Part shown: positions 4,749-39,284 of the stretch, piece by piece
Layout of the letters: each line of letters begins with the position of its first letter
Position numbering within the stretch: position 1 is the first letter of the stretch
DNA from: Bacteroidota bacterium
GTDB lineage: Bacteria; Bacteroidota; Bacteroidia; UBA7662; CANHCV01
Reading direction: 5' to 3'
DNA length: 64,000 bases
NCBI GenBank assembly: GCA_947501265.1
Contig: CANMVY010000003.1
Coordinates: 62,001-126,000 of the forward strand
Program-made: the position numbers and the translations under genes
The notes under the pieces: generated by a model
What the model was told of the DNA's origin: nothing
What the model saw: only the letters and a program-made list of their open reading frames with translations
Databases searched by the model: none

Positions 4749-6866
4749 ATGAAGAAACTAGTTTTACTTTTCTTTCTTTCATTCTTCTCCTACGAGATTT
4801 TTGCTTCTCACGTCGCTGGTGCCACGATTTATTACGATCCCATTAGCAGTAACCAGTACCGTGTAACCTTGGTGCTTTACCGGGATTGTTCGGGAATCAC
4901 CCTGGGAATTACCTCTGCTCCAATCACTTGGAGGAGTCGATGTGGCCAACAAGGCACGTTCAACGTTAATCTTCAAAGCACGGGTTCAACCAACCGAGCA
5001 CTGCCCGATGAGTGTAAACTAAATTTGCCTCCAACTACCTGTGAGGGTGGAACCCGATACGGTTTGGAAAAATTTGTTTTCTCTGGAATTTGGACGGTTC
5101 CAACCAACGTCCCCTTCAACTGTCGCCAGTTTGTTTTCGGTCACCAAGTTCAATGTTGCCGAAATACCAACGCTACAACCAACTCAGCTGATGCTTATGT
5201 AGAATCCTATTTGAACGATACCTTGGTTCCCAAAAATTCCAATGCTCGTTCACAGAATTTTTATCTCCCCGGGTATTGCGCTGGACAGCCCATCGAGTTT
5301 GATTTGGGTCCCTTCGATCCAGATCGTGATTCACTTTCATTTTTTATGATCCCCGCAAAAACTGGTCCCGGAGCCTACAATACCAATGCTACAGGAGTAA
5401 ACGTGCTTTATAATGCGGGTAGAACGTTTCAAGCTCCTATTGCCCTTCAACCTGGAACCAATATTCGAATTGACTCCACCCGAGGAATCATGTACATTAC
5501 GCCAACCCCGGCCATTCAAATCGGAATTTTCGCATTTATGGTTCAGGATTGGCGATTAACGAAGGTAGATAGTGCTACAGGACAAAAAACATGGGTACTA
5601 GCCGGTACGAATAATCTTGATCTTCAATATTATTTCCAAAATACACCCGCCTATTGCGATAACGTTCGTCCTAATTTCCGTCCCAATAATTTCACCGTAG
5701 ATTGTTTTACGGATTCAATTGCACTTACCTTTAATGTGGATGTTACCTGCAACACAGTAACTACCGATGCCACCGAGTTTCGTTTGTTAGCGCCCTCCAA
5801 CCAACAGATTCCAATGCTTTGGGCTCAACCCATTCTTTGCAATCAAATTTCAAGTCCAGGGATTTTCAAAACCCGCAACATGCTTCTTAAATTCCGTAAT
5901 CCACTCAATCGTAATGGAGTGTACAAGCTTTATGTGAAAAAGGGACGCGATGGGGATACCTTCGGTAACAAGTGTAAGAAATTTATGAACGAATTCGATA
6001 CCATCCGAATTGTTGTCAACAATTGCTACGAATACAACGATCCACAAGATCTATTGAACGTTACGGTTGATTCCATCACGAACAAAGGTGTTTTTGTAGA
6101 ATGGGCAGATCCAAGTGCAGCTTTGGATTACAACTACTTCAAATCGTTCAACATTTACAAAAAAGCTGCGGCTTCCGATCCATGGTCTTTGATCCACGAA
6201 GAAAAAAATCCAGCTGTTCGTACCTTCAAGGATAACGACATCAATGTAGATAAAGATACGGCGTTGTACACCATCACGGTTACCTTGAAAACAGGAGTAG
6301 AAACTCCCATCAATGATTCCATTTACAACATTCACTTTACCTACGATCCGAATAATGTACCCGATGAATTCAAGGCCAACATTTCTTGGAATCAGTACGT
6401 AGGTTGGAATGCTCCTTCTTACACGGTTCAAATTTCTCCAGAATTTACTCCACCTGCATTTACAACCACTTCTCCAGTAATCAATACCACTTCTCTGGGA
6501 GATTCTTTGGTAAAGCCTTTGGAAGCTGGGAAATATCTAGTTCGTGTTATTTCCGACCAAGTGGGAGGTGCGCAAAAAAGAACGTATTCCAACTGGGTTG
6601 GTTTTGAAGTGCCCGTTCGACAATTGAAAACCTATAACGTTATCACTCCTAATGGAGATGGTGCAAACGATCTATTTGAAATTGATGGGTTGCAGTTTTG
6701 GCCAAGAACAAAACTAACCATTTACAATCGTTGGGGTCAAGCCGTTTATAAGTCAGAAGATTACCGAAACGATTGGGGAACCGATGCTGCTGAAGGAACT
6801 TACTTTTATCTGGTAGAACCATCCAACGGAAAGAATCTCCAAGGTGTACTCAAAGTAGTGAAGTAA
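4749..6866 (+). CDS. Secreted protein with gliding-motility-type C-terminal sorting domain
   Basis: 705 residues. The ATG at 4749 gives a clean signal peptide (MKKLVLLFFLSFFSYEIFA); an upstream in-frame TTG adds 27 residues without a signal and is rejected. The mature start SHVAGATIYYDPIS with YRVTLVLYRDCSG is a common N-terminal module of large Bacteroidota surface proteins. The middle holds beta-sandwich, fibronectin-like repeats. The last ~80 residues (YNVITPNGDGANDLFEI, then LTIYNRWGQAVYKS) are the gliding-motility-associated, type B sorting domain used by the type IX secretion system. It is probably an exported surface adhesin or matrix protein. A rho-independent terminator follows directly. 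Confidence 0.88.
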   Translation: MKKLVLLFFLSFFSYEIFASHVAGATIYYDPISSNQYRVTLVLYRDCSGITLGITSAPITWRSRCGQQGTFNVNLQSTGSTNRALPDECKLNLPPTTCEGGTRYGLEKFVFSGIWTVPTNVPFNCRQFVFGHQVQCCRNTNATTNSADAYVESYLNDTLVPKNSNARSQNFYLPGYCAGQPIEFDLGPFDPDRDSLSFFMIPAKTGPGAYNTNATGVNVLYNAGRTFQAPIALQPGTNIRIDSTRGIMYITPTPAIQIGIFAFMVQDWRLTKVDSATGQKTWVLAGTNNLDLQYYFQNTPAYCDNVRPNFRPNNFTVDCFTDSIALTFNVDVTCNTVTTDATEFRLLAPSNQQIPMLWAQPILCNQISSPGIFKTRNMLLKFRNPLNRNGVYKLYVKKGRDGDTFGNKCKKFMNEFDTIRIVVNNCYEYNDPQDLLNVTVDSITNKGVFVEWADPSAALDYNYFKSFNIYKKAAASDPWSLIHEEKNPAVRTFKDNDINVDKDTALYTITVTLKTGVETPINDSIYNIHFTYDPNNVPDEFKANISWNQYVGWNAPSYTVQISPEFTPPAFTTTSPVINTTSLGDSLVKPLEAGKYLVRVISDQVGGAQKRTYSNWVGFEVPVRQLKTYNVITPNGDGANDLFEIDGLQFWPRTKLTIYNRWGQAVYKSEDYRNDWGTDAAEGTYFYLVEPSNGKNLQGVLKVVK

Positions 6867-6874
6867 AACATACA

Positions 6875-6898
6875 GGGTGGCGAATGCCACCCTTTTTT
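6875..6898 (+). terminator. Rho-independent terminator of the gliding-type surface protein
   Basis: GGGTGGC (6875-6881), loop GAAT, GCCACCC (6886-6892), then six T residues. It begins nine bases after the stop codon. Confidence 0.9.
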
Positions 6899-7284
6899 AT
6901 GAAGTAAATATTTAAGTAGATTCTATTCCTCGTCTTTAAGAATATTTCCTTGATCTAAGATTTTCATTCAATCTCCAGTAAAGTGGTGAAGAAATGTAGT
7001 GCATGATCATCGAAGAACGATGTTCTGTATTGATGCATTTGAAATCTCCTTTTCAATCTTTTCCATAAAGAAAATCAGTTAACCTCAATAGTACATTCCA
7101 GTGTATGATGGCATTATTGATGAAAGGCAAAAGAAAAGTAGATGAATTGAGGACTATCCCCTTGTTGACCTGTGCTTTGGAAACCCTGCAAAAAATGGAT
7201 CTTGCTTTCAAGTATTCTATAAGAAATTAGATTAAGTCGGCTAGGTATAGGAATTTGAATGGGTGGATGAATTGGTTTTACAAT
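6899..7284. other. Intergenic region, no intact gene seen
   Basis: About 390 bp between two terminators. I see no intact gene, RNA gene or strong promoter. A short open stretch on the plus strand (about 7108-7230) reads MALLMKGKRKVDELRTIPLL and then ALETLQKM. The RTIPLL part faintly recalls tyrosine recombinases, but the frame lacks their catalytic residues and could be chance. Composition is AT-rich. Confidence 0.4.
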
Positions 7285-7313
7285 AAAAAAGGGAGCAAAA
7301 TGCTCCCTTTTTT
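7285..7313 (-). terminator. Bidirectional terminator, mainly for the M20 peptidase gene
   Basis: A run of A, then GGGAGCA (7291-7297), loop AAA, TGCTCCC (7301-7307), then a run of T. The A and T runs on either side allow termination on both strands. It lies 18 bp beyond the stop of the minus-strand peptidase gene. Confidence 0.85.
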
Positions 7314-7330
7314 ATTCAACGAAATCAGCG

Positions 7331-8710
7331 TTATTCCGAAAAATACTGAAAGAAATAAGGAATGGTTTTAATGCCCTGATAAAAGTTAAATATTCCGTAA
7401 TGTTCATTGGGAGAATGGATAGCGTCGGAATCCAAACCAAAGCCCAAAAGAACGGTTTTGATGTTTAATTTCTCCTCAAACATGGCTACGATGGGGATGG
7501 ATCCTCCAGACCGAACGGGAAGAGGTTTTTTGCCATAGGTCATTTCAATGGCCTTGCTCGCTGCATGGTATGCCTTTGAATCAATTGGGGTAACGGCGGG
7601 AAAACCTCCGTGGTGGGGATGCACGGCTACTGTTACACCCGATGGAGCAATGGACTCAAAATGATCTTTGAACAGCTGGGTGATTTCATCGGGTGTTTGA
7701 TGGGGAACCAAACGCATGCTAATTTTTGCAAAGGCCTTGGAAGGAATGACGGTTTTTGCGCCATCTCCGGTATAGCCGCCCCAAATACCGTTTACATCCA
7801 ACGTTGGACGTGTAGCGGCTCGCTCAAGGGTATGGTATCCTTCCTCTCCAGCTACATCGGTTAATGCTAAAGCATTTTTGTATTCTTCCAAATTGAATGG
7901 AATTTCTTGAATGAGTTTTCGCTCATCATCGCTTAACTCTTCAACCGAGTTGTAAAATCCTGGAATGTTGATTTTCCCTTGCTCATCTTTTAAGGAAGCA
8001 ATCATTTCGCATAGAACATTGATGGGATTGGCTACGGCCCCTCCATACAATCCAGAATGCAAGTCACGATTGGGGCCGGTTACTTCAACCTCTAAATACG
8101 ATAATCCTCTTAAACCCATCGTAATGGATGGAACGTCGTTCGAAATCATTCCGGTGTCGGAAATCAAAACTACGTCAGCTTTCAAACGTTCCCGATTCGC
8201 TTCCACAAATGGTCCAAGGTTAATGGATCCTACTTCTTCCTCGCCTTCCAATAAGAATTTGACGTTACAGGGTAATGTTTGGGTGGAAATCATCGCCTCG
8301 AAAGCTTTGATGTGCATGAACATCTGTCCTTTGTCGTCGCAAGCACCTCGAGCGAATATGGCGCCATTGGGATGAATTTCTGTTTTTCGAATGACAGGTT
8401 CGAAGGGAGGGGTCGTCCATAATTCAAAGGGTTCAGCAGGCTGAACATCGTAATGGCCGTACACCAAAACGGTAGGAAGCGAAGGGTCGATGATTTTCTC
8501 ACCGAAAACAATGGGAAAGCCATCTGTTGGACAAATTTCAACGTTATCGGCCCCTGAACTTTCCAATTGATTCTTTAAAAAATCAGCCGCTTCATACACA
8601 TCCTCGTTGTAGCTCGGATTTGCGCTAACCGATGGAATTCTTAAAAAGGCAAATAATTCTTGTAAATATTTATCCTTGTTGGCTTCGATGTAGTCTGCTA
8701 AATTTTTCAT
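7331..8710 (-). CDS. M20 family metallopeptidase (dipeptidase)
   Basis: 459 residues from ATG 8710; an in-frame start 39 bases upstream lacks support because the family begins near MKNLADYIEANKDKYLQEL. The M20 zinc site is clear: GHYDVQP (about residue 83), the catalytic DDKGQ, EGEEEVGS (general base and metal ligand) and SDTGM, followed by the dimerisation domain (GLRGLSYLEVEVTG) and a C-terminal catalytic segment. These enzymes hydrolyse dipeptides or other short peptides in the cytoplasm with two zinc ions. It stands alone on the minus strand and is divergent from the DUF7662-like gene. Confidence 0.92.
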   Translation of the reverse strand: MKNLADYIEANKDKYLQELFAFLRIPSVSANPSYNEDVYEAADFLKNQLESSGADNVEICPTDGFPIVFGEKIIDPSLPTVLVYGHYDVQPAEPFELWTTPPFEPVIRKTEIHPNGAIFARGACDDKGQMFMHIKAFEAMISTQTLPCNVKFLLEGEEEVGSINLGPFVEANRERLKADVVLISDTGMISNDVPSITMGLRGLSYLEVEVTGPNRDLHSGLYGGAVANPINVLCEMIASLKDEQGKINIPGFYNSVEELSDDERKLIQEIPFNLEEYKNALALTDVAGEEGYHTLERAATRPTLDVNGIWGGYTGDGAKTVIPSKAFAKISMRLVPHQTPDEITQLFKDHFESIAPSGVTVAVHPHHGGFPAVTPIDSKAYHAASKAIEMTYGKKPLPVRSGGSIPIVAMFEEKLNIKTVLLGFGLDSDAIHSPNEHYGIFNFYQGIKTIPYFFQYFSE

Positions 8711-8805
8711 TTTCTTTAGATTTTTAAAAAAGTTGTCATGTTTTGACAAACTTGTTTTTTTTATTTCTTAAGTTAACGTAAATTTACAACCTAAATCGAT
8801 GCATT

Positions 8806-9246
8806 ATGAAAAAGTATTCAAATTTAAAATTCCATTTGGAGGAAGCTGGTATCCCTGTTGTTACCATGTCTTTTGCTGAAATGGGACAGGTATTAGGATT
8901 CCCATTGCCTTCATCCGCTGGAAAATTCAAAAATTGGTGGTCAAACACCCGCAGCGGACAATCTTCTGCTTGGCAGGAAGCCGGTTACAAAGCCGATGCA
9001 AAGTCGTTGATTTTTGATGAAAACGCAGAAGGTCGCAATTTCGATCAGTACCAAATTTCATTTGTTCGCCGTGGTCGTCCAATGTATGCAAACGTAAGTG
9101 AAAATTCTTCAAATGCTGGTAACGACTTGAAGAACATGCAACTGATTGCTGAAGCCATCTTAGGTTTCGATGAATTGTTGCAACTTGGTCACATCAGCAA
9201 AAAAGATTTCGAGAAAGTACGTGACCGTGCTTTGAGTTTCCTATAA
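8806..9246 (+). CDS. DUF7662-like domain protein of unknown function
   Basis: 146 residues with no signal peptide or membrane segment. Residues 20-65 (MSFAEMGQVLGFPLPSSAGK, then WWSN, then WQEAGYKADA) match the pattern of the DUF7662 domain, seen in proteins near defence or nuclease genes in other bacteria; its biochemical role is not known to me. The C-terminal helical part (KNMQLIAEAILGFDELLQLG) is unrecognised. It is a single transcription unit with its own terminator 27 bp downstream. Codon choice looks like well-expressed neighbours such as the OmpA gene. Confidence 0.65.
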   Translation: MKKYSNLKFHLEEAGIPVVTMSFAEMGQVLGFPLPSSAGKFKNWWSNTRSGQSSAWQEAGYKADAKSLIFDENAEGRNFDQYQISFVRRGRPMYANVSENSSNAGNDLKNMQLIAEAILGFDELLQLGHISKKDFEKVRDRALSFL

Positions 9247-9320: not shown

Positions 9321-10121
9321 TCATGGGTTACAAATTAAACAATACATGGGATCCTCTTTGGTTTTTCCATTTGGATTGCTTTTGATTTCTTCATGTTGGC
9401 AAACCTCACAAACATGAATGGAATAAAGGATGGAGGAGGTAGGGGAGTTGCACCACTGGCACGGAAGTCCTCGTTCTACTTTTTTTTGTGAGAAGCCAGG
9501 TTACTCGCACTTTGGACATTCCGTTTGAAGTTGGGTTAAGAAATTTGAGAAACCTATTCGAATATTCGCCATTCGGGTAGGATTGTTCATTGCTCTCATA
9601 TCGCTTTCAGCCATAACAGTATCTCCTAAAGTTCCATAAACTGAAAAAAGGGTTTTCCAATCAAAAATGTCCTTAAAAATTTCCAAGTCATTCCCGCTGT
9701 TTTTTTTGAGAATGATCCCATGGCTTGGGAATTTAATCCGGTTGCAAAACTCAACCAATTGTTGCTCGGAATGAATGGATTCAATCTGGAAATTGGTGTG
9801 TTGGGAAGTGTAATGATGATAGAATTTGGAGTTTGAGGAACGATCGAAAAGAATAAACGATTCTTGGTGTTGGGGCACCCACGGAAATAAAGGATGAGGT
9901 CCGAAACTTCCTTCCGTGGCGATAAACAAGGAATGCTTGGAACTAGAAAATCCTAATTTGCATTTTTCTTCCAAGGTGTCCATTACGGAAAGATTCCTAG
10001 GAATTTCACCGGAAAAAGTTCCAAGCGCATCGGTCTCTGCTTCAATAACTAAGGTTTTCGATGCGCCATTTTGGTGTAAAATGGGAAAAATAGCAAGCTC
10101 TTTCTGATGTTTAGAAACCAA
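9321..10121 (-). pseudogene. DUF6671 family gene interrupted by an in-frame TAA
   Basis: The first 206 codons run from TTG 10121 to a TAA at 9503-9501 and carry the family signature (DALGTFSGEIPR, ATEGSFGPHP, ESDMRAMNNPTRM, then ECPKC). In the same frame, directly after the TAA, the reading continues PGFSQKKVERGLPCQWCNSP, then CEVCQHEE and finally MYCLICNP before a TGA at 9321. In my recollection the family has one continuous CPxCxxPGF...GLPCxxC...CxxC...CNP zinc-binding tail, so the stop falls inside a conserved motif. The 5' end is also suspect: an in-frame TGA lies two codons upstream of the TTG and the usual first strand is missing. The function of the family is unknown. It is either a recent pseudogene, a sequencing error, or a truncated but expressed protein. 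Confidence 0.75.
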
Positions 10122-12712: not shown

Positions 12713-12878
12713 GACCTGATTTCCTCGCTTCGCTCGGAGGATTTGAATGGCATAGTAAAGGTTGGGCAGAAGCTAGGGAAAAGTGGGAAACGTTTATAAA
12801 CGTTTCATGTAAGGGTACATCAAGGCTCAATTGCTAGTTTTGTTCGAAATTTGTGGGTGGCAGGGTGGGGGTGGTGGG
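12713..12878 (+). repeat. 166-bp repeat, copy 1, with 18-bp palindrome and G-rich end
   Basis: Nearly identical to 12986-13151, offset exactly 273 bp, with only a couple of differences near the 3' end. It contains a small hairpin (TCCTC...GAGGA at 12721-12741), the perfect palindrome AAACGTTTATAAACGTTT (12788-12805) and a G-rich end (12855-12878) with four runs of three or more G separated by short loops. It has no coding potential and lies between the LysR gene and the initiator tRNA. Confidence 0.9.
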
Positions 12879-12937
12879 ACCCATTTCCTATATTTATTTT
12901 CTTACATCTCTTCCTGATGCAAGCATCGCTCACAAGA

Positions 12938-12988
12938 GAAAATAAAAAAGACCCTTCTTTCGAACTGCCTTGAAGAAGTAGTGGGGAC
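12938..12988 (-). repeat. Degenerate copy of the initiator-tRNA 3' end and terminator
   Basis: 51 bp that align without gaps to 13207-13257 at about 80 percent identity. The matching segment covers the terminator hairpin and the acceptor end of the initiator tRNA (GTAGTGGGGAC against GTAGCGGGGAC). The rest of the tRNA is absent, so this is a relic of a duplicated tRNA locus. Confidence 0.7.
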
Positions 12989-13151
12989 CTGATTTCCTCG
13001 CTTCGCTCGGAGGATTTGAATGGCATAGTAAAGGTTGGGCAGAAGCTAGGGAAAAGTGGGAAACGTTTATAAACGTTTCATGTAAGGGTACATCAAGGCT
13101 CAATTGCTAGTTTTGTTCGAAATTCGTGGGTGGTAGGGTGGGGGTGGTGGG
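12986..13151 (+). repeat. 166-bp repeat, copy 2, with 18-bp palindrome and G-rich end
   Basis: Second copy of the 12713-12878 repeat. The palindrome lies at 13061-13078 and the G-rich end at 13128-13151. It is preceded by a degenerate copy of the tRNA terminator and of the last bases of tRNA (12938-12988) and followed by the intact ones (13207-13257), so the whole 273-bp unit was duplicated in tandem and the tails then diverged. Confidence 0.9.
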
Positions 13152-13212
13152 TCCCCATTTTCAATATTTTTCCATCGTTTCGCAAATGTCATCAACGCCC
13201 ACTAAAGAAAAT

Positions 13213-13240
13213 AAAAAAGCCAGTTCTTTCGAACTGGCTT
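13213..13240 (-). terminator. Terminator of initiator tRNA-Met
   Basis: On the minus strand AAGCCAGTTC (13240-13231) pairs with GAACTGGCTT (13226-13217) around a four-base loop, followed by a T run (A run 13213-13218 on the plus strand). It lies 8 bp beyond the tRNA. Confidence 0.9.
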
Positions 13241-13247
13241 GACCTAG

Positions 13248-13320
13248 TAGCGGGGACAGGACTCGAACCTATGACCTCTGGGTTATGAGCCCAGCGAGCT
13301 ACCAACTGCTCCACCCCGCA
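13248..13320 (-). tRNA. Initiator tRNA-fMet (CAT)
   Basis: A 73-nt cloverleaf on the minus strand. The acceptor stem pairs from position 2 (GCGGGG with CCCCGC) while positions 1 and 72 are T and T and do not pair. The anticodon arm CTGGG/CTCATAA/CCCAG has anticodon CAT and three consecutive G-C pairs next to the loop. The unpaired 1-72 position and the three G-C pairs are the hallmarks of the initiator tRNA. The T arm is ATAGG/TTCGAGT/CCTGT. The CCA end is not encoded. A good promoter and a terminator flank it. Confidence 0.95.
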
Positions 13321-24117: not shown

Positions 24118-25938
24118 ATGTTCAAAAAATCACTTTCCAAAAGTTTAATTGCTTTTGGTTTTCTTTCTGCAGTATTTTCTTCAGAAGTTGCTTTTTCCCA
24201 AGCGTTAAACAAAAAAACTGCTTCTGATAAAGCAGAGAATGCCAATTTCCCAGATCGTAAAAAAGATCAGTGGGCGGTGGGTCTTCACGTTGGTAACCTA
24301 AACGTTACTGGTGATGTGAAATCTAAGAATCCTTCATTGGGTTATGCCTTGGATGTTCGCAAGTCCTTCGGTCACACTTTTTCACTTCGTGGATATGCTC
24401 TTTTGGGAAATGCCACTGGTCGTGATTTAAGAACTACGGGTTCTATTCGTACTTTGTATAAAACGAATCCTGCTTTAACCAAATACATCGCAGCTAACCG
24501 TTTGTTTGTTTACAATTATAAAACCAATATCAAAGATTTTTCTTTGCAAGGTGTTATTTCTTTGAACAACTTGAATTTTTACCGCAAGAGCAGCAAATGG
24601 AATTTGTATATGTTCGCTGGTATGGGTGCAATGACATACAACACCAAAGTTGATGCATTGGATGCTTCTGGTAATATTTACGATTTCTCTGGAGTAGATT
24701 TTGATAAACTTTCTCAAAAAGAAATCAAGAGTAAATTGGCTGATGTTTTTGATGGTACATACGAATCTGAAGGTCCAAGCTTTACCCGCGATTATAATGA
24801 TATTAAATGGAATGTTACAGCTCGTTTGGGAACAGGACTTCAATACAAATTGGGTAAAAACTATGCCGTTGGTTTAGAGTACTCTTTCACTAGAACATCT
24901 GATGATTATTTGGATACTCGTGCTTTCACATCTGCTCCTGATAATACACTAACCAATACCAAAGATTTCGACAATTATTCTTTTGTTAACGCTACTTTCG
25001 AGTACCGTCTTGGAAAAGCTCAAACTTCTCTTTGGTGGGAAAATCCTTTGGAGCCCGCTTACAAAGAATTAGCGGAAAGCAAAGAGAAAATCAAGAACAT
25101 TACAGCTGATGATGACAAAGATGGTGTGCCTAACTATGTAGATCAGGAGCCAAATACTCCAGCTGATGCACAAGTTGATTCTAAAGGGATGTCTTTGGAT
25201 TCCGATAAAGATGGAGTGCCAAATCACTTAGATGCTGAACCATTCTCTCCAGATCCAAAAAACGTAAACGAAAAAGGTGAAAGCGTTAATAAATTGGTTG
25301 TTGATAGAAATGCTCCGGTTGATACCAATAACCTTTTAGATCCCCGAAATCCTAAATCAATTTATTACGGTGCTGGAAACGGTGGAGATGATTCTTACGA
25401 TGAAGGTGATGCTGGCGATAACACTGGTGGCGACAATGCTGGTGGCGATAACACAGGTGGTAATAATAGTGGAAAAGGTGGAAAAGGCGGTTTCGGAAAA
25501 GGAACAGTTTGTAACCCAACTAATCTTCCAATGGTTCACTTCGATTTGAATCGCTTCTACATCAAACCTGAATTCAATGCAGCCTTGCACGAAGTAGCTA
25601 TGATGATGATTGCTTGCCCAAGTATCAAATTGGTAGTAACTGGTCATACCGACAACCGTGAGAATGCTGAATACAACAAGAAATTGTCTTACAATCGTGC
25701 TACTAAAGTAACCGATTACATTGTTTCCAAGTACGGAATCAACGCCGATCGATTCATGGTGAAGTTCGATGGTGAATCAGCTCCAATGGTTCCTGGATTG
25801 CCAGATTCTTGGTCTCCAAAATACGATTTCCGTCAGTATTTGAATCGCCGAGTTGAGTTCCGCATTGCTAAACCAGGTGAAACCGGTTCTGCTAAACCTG
25901 CGGCTCCTAACAAGATGAATGCTGGTAAAGATTATTAA
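24118..25938 (+). CDS. OmpA family outer membrane protein with thrombospondin type 3 repeats
   Basis: 606 residues. Signal peptide (residues 1-28, ending VAFSQA), a beta-barrel of about 300 residues (WAVGLHVGNLNVTGDVKSKN onward with alternating hydrophobic strands), two calcium-binding thrombospondin type 3 repeats (DDDKDGVPNYVDQEP, DSDKDGVPNHLDAEP), a Gly/Asp/Asn-rich linker (GDNTGGDNAGGDNTGG) and an OmpA peptidoglycan-binding domain (HFDLNRFYIKPEF, VTGHTDNRENAEYNKKLSYNRA). It links the outer membrane to the cell wall and is likely abundant, given its strong promoter and regular codon choice. The last codons belong to the 103-bp tandem repeat. Confidence 0.93.
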   Translation: MFKKSLSKSLIAFGFLSAVFSSEVAFSQALNKKTASDKAENANFPDRKKDQWAVGLHVGNLNVTGDVKSKNPSLGYALDVRKSFGHTFSLRGYALLGNATGRDLRTTGSIRTLYKTNPALTKYIAANRLFVYNYKTNIKDFSLQGVISLNNLNFYRKSSKWNLYMFAGMGAMTYNTKVDALDASGNIYDFSGVDFDKLSQKEIKSKLADVFDGTYESEGPSFTRDYNDIKWNVTARLGTGLQYKLGKNYAVGLEYSFTRTSDDYLDTRAFTSAPDNTLTNTKDFDNYSFVNATFEYRLGKAQTSLWWENPLEPAYKELAESKEKIKNITADDDKDGVPNYVDQEPNTPADAQVDSKGMSLDSDKDGVPNHLDAEPFSPDPKNVNEKGESVNKLVVDRNAPVDTNNLLDPRNPKSIYYGAGNGGDDSYDEGDAGDNTGGDNAGGDNTGGNNSGKGGKGGFGKGTVCNPTNLPMVHFDLNRFYIKPEFNAALHEVAMMMIACPSIKLVVTGHTDNRENAEYNKKLSYNRATKVTDYIVSKYGINADRFMVKFDGESAPMVPGLPDSWSPKYDFRQYLNRRVEFRIAKPGETGSAKPAAPNKMNAGKDY

Positions 25939-26011
25939 TCGTTCAATTTTCCCATATTAAAAGAGGGGTTGACATTTGTCATCCCCTCTTTTATGTTTAA
26001 TCTAATCGTTT
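25909..26011 (+). repeat. 103-bp tandem repeat, copy 1 (OmpA end plus terminator)
   Basis: Starts in the OmpA codons for NKMNAGKDY, runs through the stop and the first terminator, and ends in TAATCTAATCGTTT, whose reverse strand still reads KRLD-stop like the end of the NlpC gene. It matches 26012-26115 with few differences. Confidence 0.92.
25959..25992 (+). terminator. Bidirectional terminator, copy 1
   Basis: AAAAGAGGGG and CCCCTCTTTT form the outer stem; the inner TGAC/GTCA also pairs across one T-T mismatch, with loop ATTT. The A and T runs permit termination from both sides. Confidence 0.9.
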
Positions 26012-26115
26012 AACAAGTTGAATGCTGGTAAAGATTATTAATCGTTCAATTTTCCCATATTAAAAGAGGGGTTGACTTTTGTCAACCCCTCTTTTATGTT
26101 TTAACCTAATCGTTT
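26012..26115 (+). repeat. 104-bp tandem repeat, copy 2 (NlpC end plus terminator)
   Basis: Repeats the OmpA tail codons (now with a TTG in place of the ATG), the stop and a terminator. It ends within the final codons of the NlpC gene (IKRLG), one T longer than copy 1. Confidence 0.92.
26062..26095 (-). terminator. Bidirectional terminator, copy 2
   Basis: A perfect 15-bp stem (AAAAGAGGGGTTGAC with GTCAACCCCTCTTTT) and loop TTTT. The T-T mismatch of copy 1 is absent. It serves the NlpC gene directly, 6 bp past its stop. Confidence 0.92.
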
Positions 26116-35800: not shown

Positions 35801-36448
35801 ATGGAAAGATTTAAATCATTGGATCCTCCTCACAAAGGACTCCGACATGCCTTGGGGCAGTTAACGCTTTTAACGGGAAAGACCAAATTCTCAGATCAAC
35901 AACAGGTTGAAAAACTTAAGAAATTAGCCGAAGAGGTTTTCTTCCTTTTAAAAGATCATACCAAAACGGAGAATGAATTTATTCTAAAACCCTTGGAAGA
36001 AAAAAATGCCTTAGCTGCGGAACCGTATTTTGAAGATCATACCGACATTGAGGAATGGGAAAATCACCTTTTTGAATCCATTAAAAATTTGGATGGAACG
36101 CAAACCGATGACCAAGGCCATTTGATCTATTTGAATTTGTGTGACTTTCAAAGTGCATACTTGGATCATATCGACGAAGAAGATGTTGAGTTGGAAGAAA
36201 AACTACAAAAGCATTTTTCTGATGAAGAATTGATCCAACATCAAATCAAAATCATGCAGCAGATGGAATTTTCAACCCTTTTGCTTTGGTTTAAGTACAT
36301 TGTGCCTGCCCGGAGAATTGAAGAAAATGCCCAGGTTTTACGAAACTTCAAGAGTAATGCTCCTGAAGAAGCATTTCAAGCGGTGATTCAAACCATTCAA
36401 GGAGAATTATCTCATGAAGAATTTGAAGCAATCATCAAATCGATTTAA
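35801..36448 (+). CDS. Hemerythrin-like HHE domain protein
   Basis: 215 residues. A hemerythrin-like four-helix bundle starts HKGLRHALGQLTLLTG, with further histidine and acidic ligands in FLLKDHTKTENEFILKPL (about 50-65), FEDHTDIEEWENHLF (about 75-90) and SAYLDHIDEEDVELEEKL (about 125-142). It probably binds a di-iron centre for oxygen or nitric oxide sensing or for scavenging. It lies four bases after selD. Its last five codons (IIKSI-stop) are part of the 65-bp repeat at the left edge of the restriction-modification cassette. Confidence 0.85.
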   Translation: MERFKSLDPPHKGLRHALGQLTLLTGKTKFSDQQQVEKLKKLAEEVFFLLKDHTKTENEFILKPLEEKNALAAEPYFEDHTDIEEWENHLFESIKNLDGTQTDDQGHLIYLNLCDFQSAYLDHIDEEDVELEEKLQKHFSDEELIQHQIKIMQQMEFSTLLLWFKYIVPARRIEENAQVLRNFKSNAPEEAFQAVIQTIQGELSHEEFEAIIKSI

Positions 36449-36495
36449 TGCATGAAAGTTATCATCACAGGAGTAACCGGAATGATTGGGGAAGG
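36431..36495 (+). repeat. 65-bp direct repeat, left copy, at the restriction-modification insertion
   Basis: Matches 38610-38674 at 61 of 65 positions with no gap. It carries the last codons and stop of the hemerythrin gene and the first 15 codons of the epimerase gene (MKVIITGVTGMIGEG), which then hit a TAA at 36497. The match stops abruptly on both sides. Confidence 0.93.
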
Positions 36496-36499
36496 ATAA
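36452..36499 (+). pseudogene. Truncated 5' end of the epimerase gene (15 codons)
   Basis: ATG 36452 opens the same reading as the intact gene at 38631 (MKVIITGVTGMIGEG) and stops at TAA 36497-36499, formed where cassette sequence begins. It may be translated from upstream transcripts but makes no functional fold. Confidence 0.85.
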
Positions 36500-36540
36500 A
36501 ACCACAATAAATTTGTAAATTTGATAAAAAGTAAGAAGGA
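36486..36540 (+). promoter_or_regulatory. Promoter and ribosome binding site of the restriction-modification cassette
   Basis: -33 TTG (36486-36488), 19-bp spacer, -7 TAAATTTG (36508-36515), immediately followed by a second TAAATTTG (36516-36523). The -33 lies inside the duplicated host DNA and the -7 in the cassette. A purine-rich AAGAAGGA (36533-36540) precedes the methyltransferase ATG by seven bases, an unusually good Shine-Dalgarno for this chromosome. Confidence 0.6.
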
Positions 36541-36547
36541 AAATTAA

Positions 36548-37822
36548 ATGAGAGAAAAATACAAAATAGCAAGTCTTTTTTCCGGTTGTGGCGGTCTCGA
36601 TCTAGGTTTCATTAAAGCCGGTTTTGAAGTCATATGGGCTAATGATTTTTTTAAAGAGGCTGTTGAAACTTACAAATTAAACATAGGCGATCATATTGTT
36701 TATGGTGACATAACAAAAATTAATAGTTCGGAGATTCCAAACGATTTCGATATTCTTTTGGGCGGATTCCCGTGCCAAGGCTTTTCTGTTGCGAATGTAA
36801 AACGTAGTATGGAAGATGAGCGTAATTTCTTGTACAAAGAACTACTGCGTCTGATAAAAGATAAGCAACCTAAATTTTTTGTTGGTGAGAATGTAAAAGG
36901 ACTTCTCTCGATGCAACAAGGTAAGGTTATTAAAATGATTATTGAAGACTTCAAATCATTAGGTTATAATGTTGAGTACAGATTACTAAAAGCATCTGAT
37001 TATGGAGTTCCTCAAAACAGAGAAAGAGTTGTAATTATAGGCAATCGTCTAGGATTAAAAAACCCTTTTCCAGAAAAGTCTCATGGCCTGGTGAATGACC
37101 TTTTTAATAATTCACTAAAACCTTATGTTTCAGTAAAAGATGTTGTTGGCCATTTGGCAAATATTAGAACAAGAGATAAATCATTTGAACTAGAAAATAA
37201 AATCATTTATAATCATCTTGCTAGAACAAATGTTGCCGATAAATTTTGGGGAAGGAAACACAAAGTAAATCAACATGATATTTGTGATTATCTAAAATAT
37301 TGGAGAGATAGAAGCGGTTGGTCTACTAAAAAAGTAGATGAACACTTTGGATATGCCCATACAGCAGGTCATTGGTTCAGAAAAGATAACAATTCAGGTA
37401 GTATTCCTAATCCTAAGGATTGGTGGGAATTGAAAAAGATACTAGGATTTGATGATAAATATGATAAAGCGGTAACCGAGTTAGAATTAAAAGAAATAAA
37501 ATTTGAGCAATCCTTAAGAATAAACAATTGGGAATTACCAAGTGACACTATTACCGCCACAGGGCCTGAAATTCACCCAAATAGAGAGCGAAGAATGTCG
37601 GTAAGAGAATGTGCTATTATTCAAACTTTTCCTGATGATTTTATTTTCACGGGCAGTCTAGGAAATATGCACAAACAAATCGGAAATGCAGTACCCGTTT
37701 TACTAGCTCAAAAAATTGCAGAAGTGATTAAAATTGAATTGGATGAATATGAAAAATCTAACAAAAAAACAAGTGGAACAACTCAAGCAGATCGAAAAAC
37801 TAGAGCAAAAGTATTTGAATAA
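36548..37822 (+). CDS. DNA (cytosine-5-)-methyltransferase
   Basis: 424 residues, a C5 cytosine methyltransferase. Motif I FSGCGGLDLGF (11-21), motif IV GGFPCQGFS with catalytic Cys76, motif VI GENVKGLL (113-120), motif VIII QNRERVVIIG (156-165) and motifs IX-X near 350-400 (IQTFPDDF, QIGNAVPVLLAQKIA). Between about 195 and 340 lies a long target-recognition region that includes a helix-turn-helix-like stretch (WRDRSGWSTKKVDEHFGYAH then GHWFRK). It methylates cytosine in an unknown site and protects the genome from the adjacent nuclease. The gene ends about 80 bases inside the nuclease gene. Confidence 0.95.
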   Translation: MREKYKIASLFSGCGGLDLGFIKAGFEVIWANDFFKEAVETYKLNIGDHIVYGDITKINSSEIPNDFDILLGGFPCQGFSVANVKRSMEDERNFLYKELLRLIKDKQPKFFVGENVKGLLSMQQGKVIKMIIEDFKSLGYNVEYRLLKASDYGVPQNRERVVIIGNRLGLKNPFPEKSHGLVNDLFNNSLKPYVSVKDVVGHLANIRTRDKSFELENKIIYNHLARTNVADKFWGRKHKVNQHDICDYLKYWRDRSGWSTKKVDEHFGYAHTAGHWFRKDNNSGSIPNPKDWWELKKILGFDDKYDKAVTELELKEIKFEQSLRINNWELPSDTITATGPEIHPNRERRMSVRECAIIQTFPDDFIFTGSLGNMHKQIGNAVPVLLAQKIAEVIKIELDEYEKSNKKTSGTTQADRKTRAKVFE

Positions 37823-38570
37823 GTATTTTTACTTTTTAAAGTTTGCTGAAGATGAGTTGCTTCACGGTTTCAAAACAAAATATAGAATAAAAAAAGATTG
37901 GTATTCTAAATGGAATCCAAATGAAGAAGGCAAAGGAATTTCAGATTTTGCAACAGGTGCAGAAAGAATCGTTTATTCTTTGCTAAACGGAAAGGGCATT
38001 GGACAACCAAATTCAGCCCCTATTGGCGCAGATTTATTTTTTGAAGTTGATGATGCTTTTATTCATATTGACCTCAAAACTGTTCAAACCAGAAATATTG
38101 GAGACTATACTAGTGACATATTCGTTGGTAATAACCAAAATAGTTACAATGGAACTCTAGATGTAAGTGGTATAGAAAAAACATATGATGAGGCATGTTT
38201 GCCAACTTTCTACACACTACCAGATAAAACTAAAAAGATATGCTTGACATATTTTATTACGATTTTATACGAGGAAATCAATTTGGACATTCTAACAATT
38301 TCAATTATTTCAATGCCGAATGGGGCATTATTTCCTATATATGGAAAAAGGGTACTTAAAGCAGGTAAAGTTTTATATCCTGTTGGCAATCCAAAAAGGG
38401 ACACTCATGCAAAATCTGTCAGATTCAAATGGAAAGAAGTGTCTGAATTTGAACTTCTCGAGAGTAACAATAAAAGAATCAAGATCGCTTACTTTAACAA
38501 TAGCATGAACGATGAATTTAAGGAGAAGCTTACATACTTTGACGAGCTTAATAAGATTCAAAATTCTTAA
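37743..38570 (+). CDS. Probable type II restriction endonuclease (PD-(D/E)XK fold)
   Basis: 275 residues. After a helical N-terminus (MNMKNLTKKQVEQLKQIEKL) comes APIGADLFFEVDDAFIHIDLKTVQ (about 92-114), in which Asp97 and the D110-L-K112 pair fit the PD-(D/E)XK nuclease core, with Glu74 as a possible extra acidic residue. The position after the methyltransferase, with an overlap of about 80 bases, is typical of a restriction partner. The specificity family is not recognised. ATG at 37743 is preferred; 37749 is also possible. The gene is AT-rich like the methyltransferase. Confidence 0.75.
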   Translation: MNMKNLTKKQVEQLKQIEKLEQKYLNKYFYFLKFAEDELLHGFKTKYRIKKDWYSKWNPNEEGKGISDFATGAERIVYSLLNGKGIGQPNSAPIGADLFFEVDDAFIHIDLKTVQTRNIGDYTSDIFVGNNQNSYNGTLDVSGIEKTYDEACLPTFYTLPDKTKKICLTYFITILYEEINLDILTISIISMPNGALFPIYGKRVLKAGKVLYPVGNPKRDTHAKSVRFKWKEVSEFELLESNNKRIKIAYFNNSMNDEFKEKLTYFDELNKIQNS

Positions 38571-38609
38571 TTAAAACTTAATCATTTTTCTTGCAAGCAT
38601 GGAATATTT

Positions 38610-38674
38610 ATCATCAAAGCGATTTAATTCATGAAAGTCATCATCACAGGAGTAACTGGAATGATTGGGGAAGG
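38610..38674 (+). repeat. 65-bp direct repeat, right copy, at the restriction-modification insertion
   Basis: Matches 36431-36495 with four differences. It begins with an orphan copy of the hemerythrin end (IIKAI-stop) and continues into the intact epimerase start at 38631. Thus each junction keeps one broken and one intact gene end. Confidence 0.93.
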
Positions 38675-39284
38675 GGTTTTGTTGGAGTGTTTGAAGGATG
38701 ATCGCGTAACCGAAGTTTTGGGGGTGAGCCGAAAATCAAGCGGGATACAACATCCTAAATTTCGGGAATATTTGGTCCCCGATTTTTTGTTGTTGAAGGA
38801 AAATGATCTCCAATTGGAGGGGTACGATGCTTGTTTTTTCTGTGCTGGAGTGAGTTACATCGGCATGAAAGAAGATGATTATTTTCGGAACACCTACCAA
38901 ACCACGTTGCAGTTTGCAAAAGCCATCGGTCCGAAAGAAAAATGCACCTTTATCTACGTGAGTGGAAGTGGCACCGATAGTTCCGAAGCCGGAGCGTTGA
39001 AGTGGGCGAGAGTTAAAGGGAAAACCGAAAACGACCTCATCGCATTGCCGTTAAAAGCGGTTTTCGGTTATCGAATCGGAGCCGTTATTCCCGCTGAAAA
39101 TCAGAAGTTTGTTCTCAAATATTACCAACGATTGAAGTGGTTGATGCCGCTCCTCAAGCGGGCGTTCCCTGGAACATTTTCCACCATGCGGCAAGTGGCT
39201 TCCAGCATGATTTACTTCAGTATTCATGGGAATTCCCACCCCATCATTCACATCAAAGACATCAAACGGGTGGCTGAATTGTAA
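38631..39284 (+). CDS. NAD(P)-binding epimerase/dehydratase-like protein
   Basis: 217 residues, atypical short SDR or NmrA-like. Cofactor loop GVTGMIGEG (residues 6-14), YVSGSGTDSSEAG and the active-site-like WARVKGKTENDL (Lys), then FGYRIGAVIP. The YxxxK tyrosine is replaced by Trp (WARVKGK), which is usual for this Bacteroidota subgroup rather than for classical epimerases. Function unknown, perhaps a reductase acting on a nucleotide-sugar or flavin-like substrate. Its first 15 codons are duplicated upstream of the restriction-modification cassette. Confidence 0.8.
   Translation: MKVIITGVTGMIGEGVLLECLKDDRVTEVLGVSRKSSGIQHPKFREYLVPDFLLLKENDLQLEGYDACFFCAGVSYIGMKEDDYFRNTYQTTLQFAKAIGPKEKCTFIYVSGSGTDSSEAGALKWARVKGKTENDLIALPLKAVFGYRIGAVIPAENQKFVLKYYQRLKWLMPLLKRAFPGTFSTMRQVASSMIYFSIHGNSHPIIHIKDIKRVAEL

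What the first reader, a model, noticed from the sequence alone, without database searches (positions are those of the whole stretch)
36431..38674. Restriction-modification cassette bounded by 65-bp direct repeats that duplicate both neighbouring gene ends
The methyltransferase/nuclease pair lies between two 65-bp repeats (36431-36495 and 38610-38674) with four mismatches. Each repeat spans the last codons and stop of the hemerythrin gene and the first 15 codons of the epimerase gene. The left copy keeps the hemerythrin end intact and truncates the epimerase; the right copy keeps the epimerase intact and holds an orphan hemerythrin tail (IIKAI-stop). This is the outcome expected if the cassette entered an existing hemerythrin/epimerase junction and duplicated the target. 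Comparative work on Helicobacter genomes described insertion with long target duplication for restriction-modification genes; here no transposase or integrase is present, so the mechanism is open. The four mismatches suggest that the event is not very recent, or that one copy came with the incoming DNA.
Basis: partly seen in the sequence, partly recalled or inferred. Interest (0 to 1): 0.8.

Follow-up and report, generated by a model that had tools for sequence, protein, structure and literature searches.

The report
Restriction cassette with duplicated insertion site
A two-gene DNA-cutting and DNA-protecting cassette inserted precisely between two neighbouring bacterial genes and duplicated 65 bases of the site, leaving both neighbours whole; a sister genome still has the empty site, so this is a clean new example of a described but mechanistically unexplained kind of gene movement.

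Summary
Confirmed. The 65-bp direct repeats at 36431-36495 and 38610-38674 match at 61 of 65 bases. They occur only there in the genome and bracket a C5-cytosine methyltransferase (424 aa) and an overlapping endonuclease (273 aa). The endonuclease's predicted fold matches BglI and SfiI.

The proposed decisive test was run. A same-genus genome (G001, 96-97% identical flanks) has the uninterrupted hemerythrin/epimerase junction with one copy of the sequence and no cassette. So the cassette entered an intact junction and duplicated it. G001, partly helped by a second congener, shows the ancestral base at three of the four mismatches: two changes fell in the left copy, one in the right.

The insert has no transposase, integrase or terminal inverted repeats, and neither joint shows microhomology. 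No Ku gene was found in the genome.

Of 43 further loci carrying relatives of the methyltransferase, four have comparable bracketing repeats, of differing kinds. A second restriction gene in the same genome sits between exact 14-bp repeats, and both congeners lack it.

This fits 'insertion with long target duplication', described in Helicobacter pylori. It is a new member of a known kind; the insertion mechanism remains open.

The parts
35801..36448 (+). hemerythrin-like gene (215 aa); its last codons and stop form the 5' part of the left repeat
   Evidence: weak PF01814 match, below the cut-off; 98% identical orthologue in G001, no match in the G002 stretch examined
36431..36495 (+). left 65-bp copy of the duplicated target: hemerythrin end plus a 15-codon epimerase stub
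   Evidence: single copy in G001. Derived at 36440 (G>T, Ala>Ser in the hemerythrin) and at 36460 (C>T)
36496..38609 (+). inserted DNA, 2114 bp, 32-34% GC against about 46-50% in the outer flanks
   Evidence: absent from G001; single copy in own genome; composition; similarity to the Melioribacteraceae cassette starts at 36497
36548..37822 (+). C5-cytosine DNA methyltransferase, 424 aa, with PCQ, ENV and GNAVP motifs
37749..38570 (+). type II restriction endonuclease of BglI/SfiI-like fold, 273 aa, overlapping the methyltransferase by 74 nt; invariant D95 and D108-L-K110 are the likely catalytic residues (my assignment)
   Evidence: the same overlap in L041
38610..38674 (+). right 65-bp copy: orphan hemerythrin tail (IIKAI-stop) plus the true epimerase start
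   Evidence: derived at 38657 (C>T)
38631..39284 (+). NAD-dependent epimerase-like gene (217 aa), intact
   Evidence: 98% identical in G001, 75% in G002

Best explanation
A self-contained type II restriction-modification cassette (2114 bp) inserted into an intact hemerythrin/epimerase junction in the G000 lineage, and 65 bp of host target was duplicated, one copy at each side. Shown: the empty site in a sister genome, the single target copy there, the boundaries, and the absence of a gene for a mobility enzyme in the insert. Inferred: incoming linear cassette DNA was joined without microhomology to target strands broken or copied about 65 nt apart, and filling in the two single-stranded stretches made the repeats. 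Because the duplication covers the end of one gene and the start of the next, both stay whole, which helps such an event survive. No recombinase is identified; Ku-dependent end joining is unlikely because no Ku was found. My confidence is for the insertion with target duplication; for the staggered-break mechanism it is about 0.4.
For: Empty site with one copy in G001. Repeats unique in the genome and far above the controls. Insert boundary on the left coincides within 1-2 bp with the start of DNA similarity to an unrelated genome's cassette. No terminal inverted repeats, and only M and R as gene candidates in the insert. No microhomology at either joint, by reading. Ancestral bases in G001 at three mismatches place changes in both copies after duplication. 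A related cassette in a termite-gut Bacteroidetes genome (L084) also lies between ~100-125 bp repeats. A second restriction gene in the same genome lies between exact 14-bp repeats, with empty sites in both congeners.
Against: One interrupted genome and one close empty site only. Most relatives of the cassette (39 of 44 testable methyltransferase loci, the window included in the 44) have no detectable flanking repeat, so long duplication is not a fixed property of the family. The physical mechanism is not observed. No Ku in G000-G002 removes the simplest end-joining route.
Confidence: 0.82

Rival explanations
1. The cassette arrived on DNA that already carried one copy of the 65 bp (from another strain with the insertion, or as a circle excised by recombination between such repeats), and a single crossover within the 65 bp produced the two flanking copies.
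For: Intrachromosomal excision and reinsertion through homologous repeats is the model preferred for flanking repeats of transposed Arabidopsis genes (PMC2869330). The four mismatches allow two slightly different source sequences.
Against: It only moves the first insertion to another strain and does not explain how the 65 bp was first duplicated. At the three polarised mismatches, the left part of the left copy, contiguous with the host hemerythrin, is the non-ancestral one, opposite to what a donor copy crossing into a G001-like recipient predicts (only three sites).
Confidence: 0.2
2. The repeats are attachment sites: the cassette was moved by a tyrosine recombinase or integron integrase that acted in trans or was later lost.
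For: The insertion lies at a 3' gene end and leaves it intact. Related cassettes elsewhere lie between attC-like sites (L052: GCCCAAC/GTTGGGC motifs) and between 50-bp repeats with a phage-type integrase about 1.3 kb outside (L054).
Against: The 65 bp is ordinary coding sequence of two host genes present in a genus mate without any element, and it is not repeated elsewhere in the genome. No integrase in the insert. I saw no attC core motifs in it by eye.
Confidence: 0.1
3. The insertion is older than the G000/G001 split and G001 lost the cassette cleanly by recombination between the repeats.
For: Direct repeats of 65 bp can recombine; 4 mismatches in 65 bp (6%) slightly exceeds the 3-4% flank divergence.
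Against: The G001 copy has the base of the right copy at 36440 and 36460 and of the left copy at 36478, not the left-then-right hybrid that excision leaves. The excess of mismatches is not significant (hand Poisson, P about 0.2).
Confidence: 0.1
4. Chance similarity or an assembly artefact.
For: The genome is a draft of 26 contigs.
Against: 100-bit match against a maximum of 26.5 bits in 232 dummy placements. The locus is inside a 270-kb contig, and the copies differ at four sites, so they are not one sequence read twice.
Confidence: 0.01

Closest known systems
Insertion with long target duplication of restriction-modification genes (Nobusato et al. 2000, H. pylori; Furuta et al. 2010), as cited in PMC3874152, PMC3031569 and PMC1643837
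   Same: RM genes inserted as a unit; direct repeats of tens of bp or more made of target sequence; single copy in an uninterrupted related genome; no linked mobile-element genes
   Different: Different host phylum (inferred GTDB Bacteroidota) and different RM family; 65 bp is below the 'order of 100 bp' quoted, and the duplication spans two gene ends so that both genes survive
BglI/SfiI-type type II restriction endonucleases
   Same: predicted fold (Foldseek E=1e-9 to BglI 1dmu and 1e-7 to SfiI 2ezv) and invariant D...D-L-K
   Different: about 15% identity, no sequence-level PDB match, recognition site unknown; GCCNNNNNGGC is not avoided in the window (10 found, 8.7 expected)
RM gene cassettes of integrons
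   Same: a related M-R pair in L052 is bracketed by attC-like sites
   Different: the window repeats are host coding sequence with no attC-like core seen

Membership tests
Insertion with long target duplication | Restriction-modification genes inserted as a unit relative to a close relative | tested here: met
   G001 lacks the 2114 bp and has the continuous junction
Insertion with long target duplication | Long direct repeats at the ends, present once in the uninterrupted genome | tested here: met
   65 bp, 61/65; single copy in G001
Insertion with long target duplication | No transposase, integrase or terminal inverted repeats in the insert | tested here: met
   only M and R as gene candidates; no inverted ends
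Insertion with long target duplication | Duplication length varies between insertions | tested here: inconclusive
   14 bp at a second RM locus of the same genome, ~100-125 bp in L084; an empty site was seen for the 14-bp case but not for L084
Type II restriction-modification system | Methyltransferase with C5 motifs next to a nuclease with a PD-(D/E)XK-type fold | tested here: met
Type II restriction-modification system | Cognate methylation and cleavage of one recognition sequence | not testable with these tools
   needs enzyme assay or methylome
BglI/SfiI endonuclease family | BglI-like fold and catalytic residues | tested here: met
   AlphaFold model mean pLDDT 82; top three Foldseek matches are BglI and SfiI; Pfam Endonuc_BglI at 23.4 bits is below its cut-off of 25
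BglI/SfiI endonuclease family | GC-rich interrupted palindrome as recognition site | not testable with these tools
   no avoidance of GCCNNNNNGGC seen in the window, which is weak evidence either way
Transposon with short target duplication | Terminal inverted repeats and a transposase | tested here: not met

The most novel reading that the evidence does not exclude
Cassettes of this M-R family insert by a homology-independent route of their own, perhaps with the nuclease or the break-repair it provokes making the widely spaced breaks, and so generate target duplications of variable length without Ku or a recombinase.
Probability: 0.07. Interest if true: 0.75.

Novelty: new member of a known kind. 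Interest (0 to 1): 0.42.

Why it matters
How restriction-modification genes move without transposases has been open since long target duplications were noticed in Helicobacter. This case is unusually clean: an empty site in a sister genome, exact boundaries, both neighbouring genes preserved, and a second RM locus in the same genome with 14-bp repeats and empty sites in both congeners. It brings the pattern to another lineage and gives constraints on mechanism (no inverted ends, no microhomology, no Ku). The relatives of the same methyltransferase suggest that one gene family is carried by several routes: integron-like sites, possible integrase sites, plasmids and bare insertion.

Tried and rejected
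PF01555: none in G000-G002. PF02384: one hit, the second RM gene. The L084 empty site could not be sought because 'of' accepts only G handles. Avoidance of the BglI site as a clue to specificity: no signal. The closest phylum hit by the endonuclease, G398 = L041/L057, has no repeats immediately flanking its cassette. G422/L042 is a distant relative without repeats. PDB sequence search for the endonuclease gave nothing; the fold search did. No endonuclease relatives in the phage collection; two in plasmids. Rejected: chance, assembly artefact and transposon, for the reasons in the rivals and membership rows.

Full report
OBSERVATION. The repeats are real and exact as described: 36431-36495 and 38610-38674, 65 nt, four mismatches, start-to-start spacing 2179. 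The whole genome (2,328,218 bases, 26 contigs) holds only these two copies. Inside the window they are the only direct repeat at E<1e-3 that is not a head-to-tail tandem, and 232 dummy elements of the same size placed elsewhere in the window had no bracketing match above 26.5 bits against 100 bits here. Reading frames confirm the gene ends: hemerythrin stop in the left copy, then a 15-codon epimerase stub; orphan IIKAI-stop in the right copy, then the intact epimerase.

THE CASSETTE. The insert (36496-38609, 2114 bp) is single-copy in the genome and 32-34% GC, against about 46-50% in the outer flanks; the hemerythrin gene itself is about 36%. It encodes a 424-aa C5-cytosine methyltransferase (PF00145, E=5e-88) and a 273-aa protein overlapping it by 74 nt, with weak Pfam (Endonuc_BglI, below cut-off) and PADLOC (REase_II) matches. 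An alignment of 20 relatives gave an AlphaFold model of mean pLDDT 82, whose three significant PDB matches are BglI and SfiI. It is therefore a type II restriction-modification system with a BglI/SfiI-like nuclease; activity and recognition site are untested. The only gene candidates in the insert are these two, and its ends are not inverted repeats.

THE EMPTY SITE. Of the same-genus genomes held, G001 (flanks 97.0% and 96.0% identical over 7.4-7.5 kb each side) has selD-hemerythrin-epimerase uninterrupted. The hemerythrin stop is followed by GT and the epimerase ATG, and the 65-bp sequence occurs once. BLAST of the window against that locus breaks exactly at the repeat, each flank running through it to give a 64-65 nt overlap. 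G002 lacks both hemerythrin and cassette at this place; its epimerase starts just after selD. In G001 the bases at three of the four mismatches are G, C and C, and G002 agrees at the two sites where it can be aligned (36460 and 36478). Two substitutions therefore fell in the left copy (36440 and 36460) and one in the right (38657). The fourth mismatch (36450) cannot be polarised, because both copies read TAAT[G/T]CATG where G001 reads TAAGTATG. That shared difference fits duplication within the G000 lineage, or a one-base loss in G001. Excision from G001 by recombination after these changes would leave a left-then-right hybrid, which is not seen.

JOINTS. By eye, the host sequence beyond the left copy (GGTGTT in G001) and the insert (ATAAAA) share no bases at the joint, and likewise the host before the right copy (GAAGCA) and the insert end (TATTT). 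So there is no microhomology. DNA similarity to the Melioribacteraceae cassette (L057 = G398) begins at 36497, one base inside the insert, which supports the left boundary independently. No Ku family gene is found in G000-G002; the control search rang in B. subtilis.

RELATIVES. A scan of one genome per species with the methyltransferase gave 47 loci, from Bacteroidota to Bacilli and Lachnospiraceae, and one viral contig. None of those loci is at this junction. Among 44 loci with enough flank, five including the window have bracketing repeats at 78-180 bits; the maximum was 36.5 in 257 mismatched pairings and 32.8 in 135 same-locus dummies. They are not all of one kind. L084: ~100-125 bp repeats at 5552-5676 and 7996-8119 around the C5 pair, and a third partial copy at about 9669-9735 after a second RM pair (N6_N4_Mtase plus a RE_BsaWI-like protein), just upstream of a ribosomal protein gene that I read as rpsJ. 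This looks like two successive insertions with long duplications, but no empty site was checked. L052: repeats with GCCCAAC/GTTGGGC motifs, resembling integron attC sites. L054: 50-bp repeats with a phage-type integrase outside. L092: paralogous genes on either side of the methyltransferase. Two plasmids encode relatives of the endonuclease, one next to a cytosine methyltransferase.

A SECOND CASE IN THE SAME GENOME. A 937-aa protein with an N6_Mtase domain, probably a fused restriction-modification enzyme, lies at C9 (L094:5943-8756). It sits between exact 14-bp repeats CAACGCCTCTCGTT at L094:5857-5870 and 8877-8890. G001 and G002 both have the uninterrupted site with one related copy. So two RM insertions in one genome carry target repeats of 65 and 14 bp.

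COMPARISON WITH THE LITERATURE. [quoted passage not shown] PMC3031569 and PMC1643837 describe the same pattern, the latter in H. pylori. I did not read the primary papers; Furuta et al. 2010 is not held. The window matches that description in every feature I could test. PMC2869330 offers the competing idea of excised circles reinserting by homology.

VERDICT. It is a new, well-documented member of a known phenomenon; the mechanism is inferred only. Interest is moderate because the empty site, the second 14-bp case and the varied carriers of the same gene family make a long-standing question testable.

Noticed in passing
L094 (G000:C9:66000-82000), 5857-8890: A fused 937-aa N6-methyltransferase restriction-type gene between exact 14-bp direct repeats; empty site with one related copy in both congeners.
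   Followed up: yes
35801-36448: The hemerythrin-like gene itself is low in GC (about 36%) and absent in congener G002 between selD and epimerase, so this junction may have gained or lost genes before.
   Followed up: partly
36486-36515: A Bacteroidota-like promoter (TTG, 19-nt spacer, TAAATTTG) would have its upstream part in the left repeat and its -7 element in the insert; read by eye only.
   Followed up: no
L084:5552-9735: Two different restriction-modification pairs stacked between three copies of a ~65-125 bp repeat just upstream of ribosomal protein genes.
   Followed up: partly
L054:5819-9178: The C5 pair plus a second endonuclease-like gene in convergent orientation between 50-bp repeats, downstream of a lysyl-tRNA synthetase-like gene, with an integrase outside.
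   Followed up: partly
L051:6001-8972: The methyltransferase match ends at residue 377 and the endonuclease match starts about 1 kb later, as if something were inserted between them.
   Followed up: no
L041:7051-9028 (G398): Methyltransferase 90% identical to the window's while the endonuclease is only 52% identical, so the two genes have diverged very unequally or been recombined.
   Followed up: no
12713-13257 and 25908-26115: Two tandem duplications in the window (about 275 bp at 88% and 105 bp at 95%).
   Followed up: no
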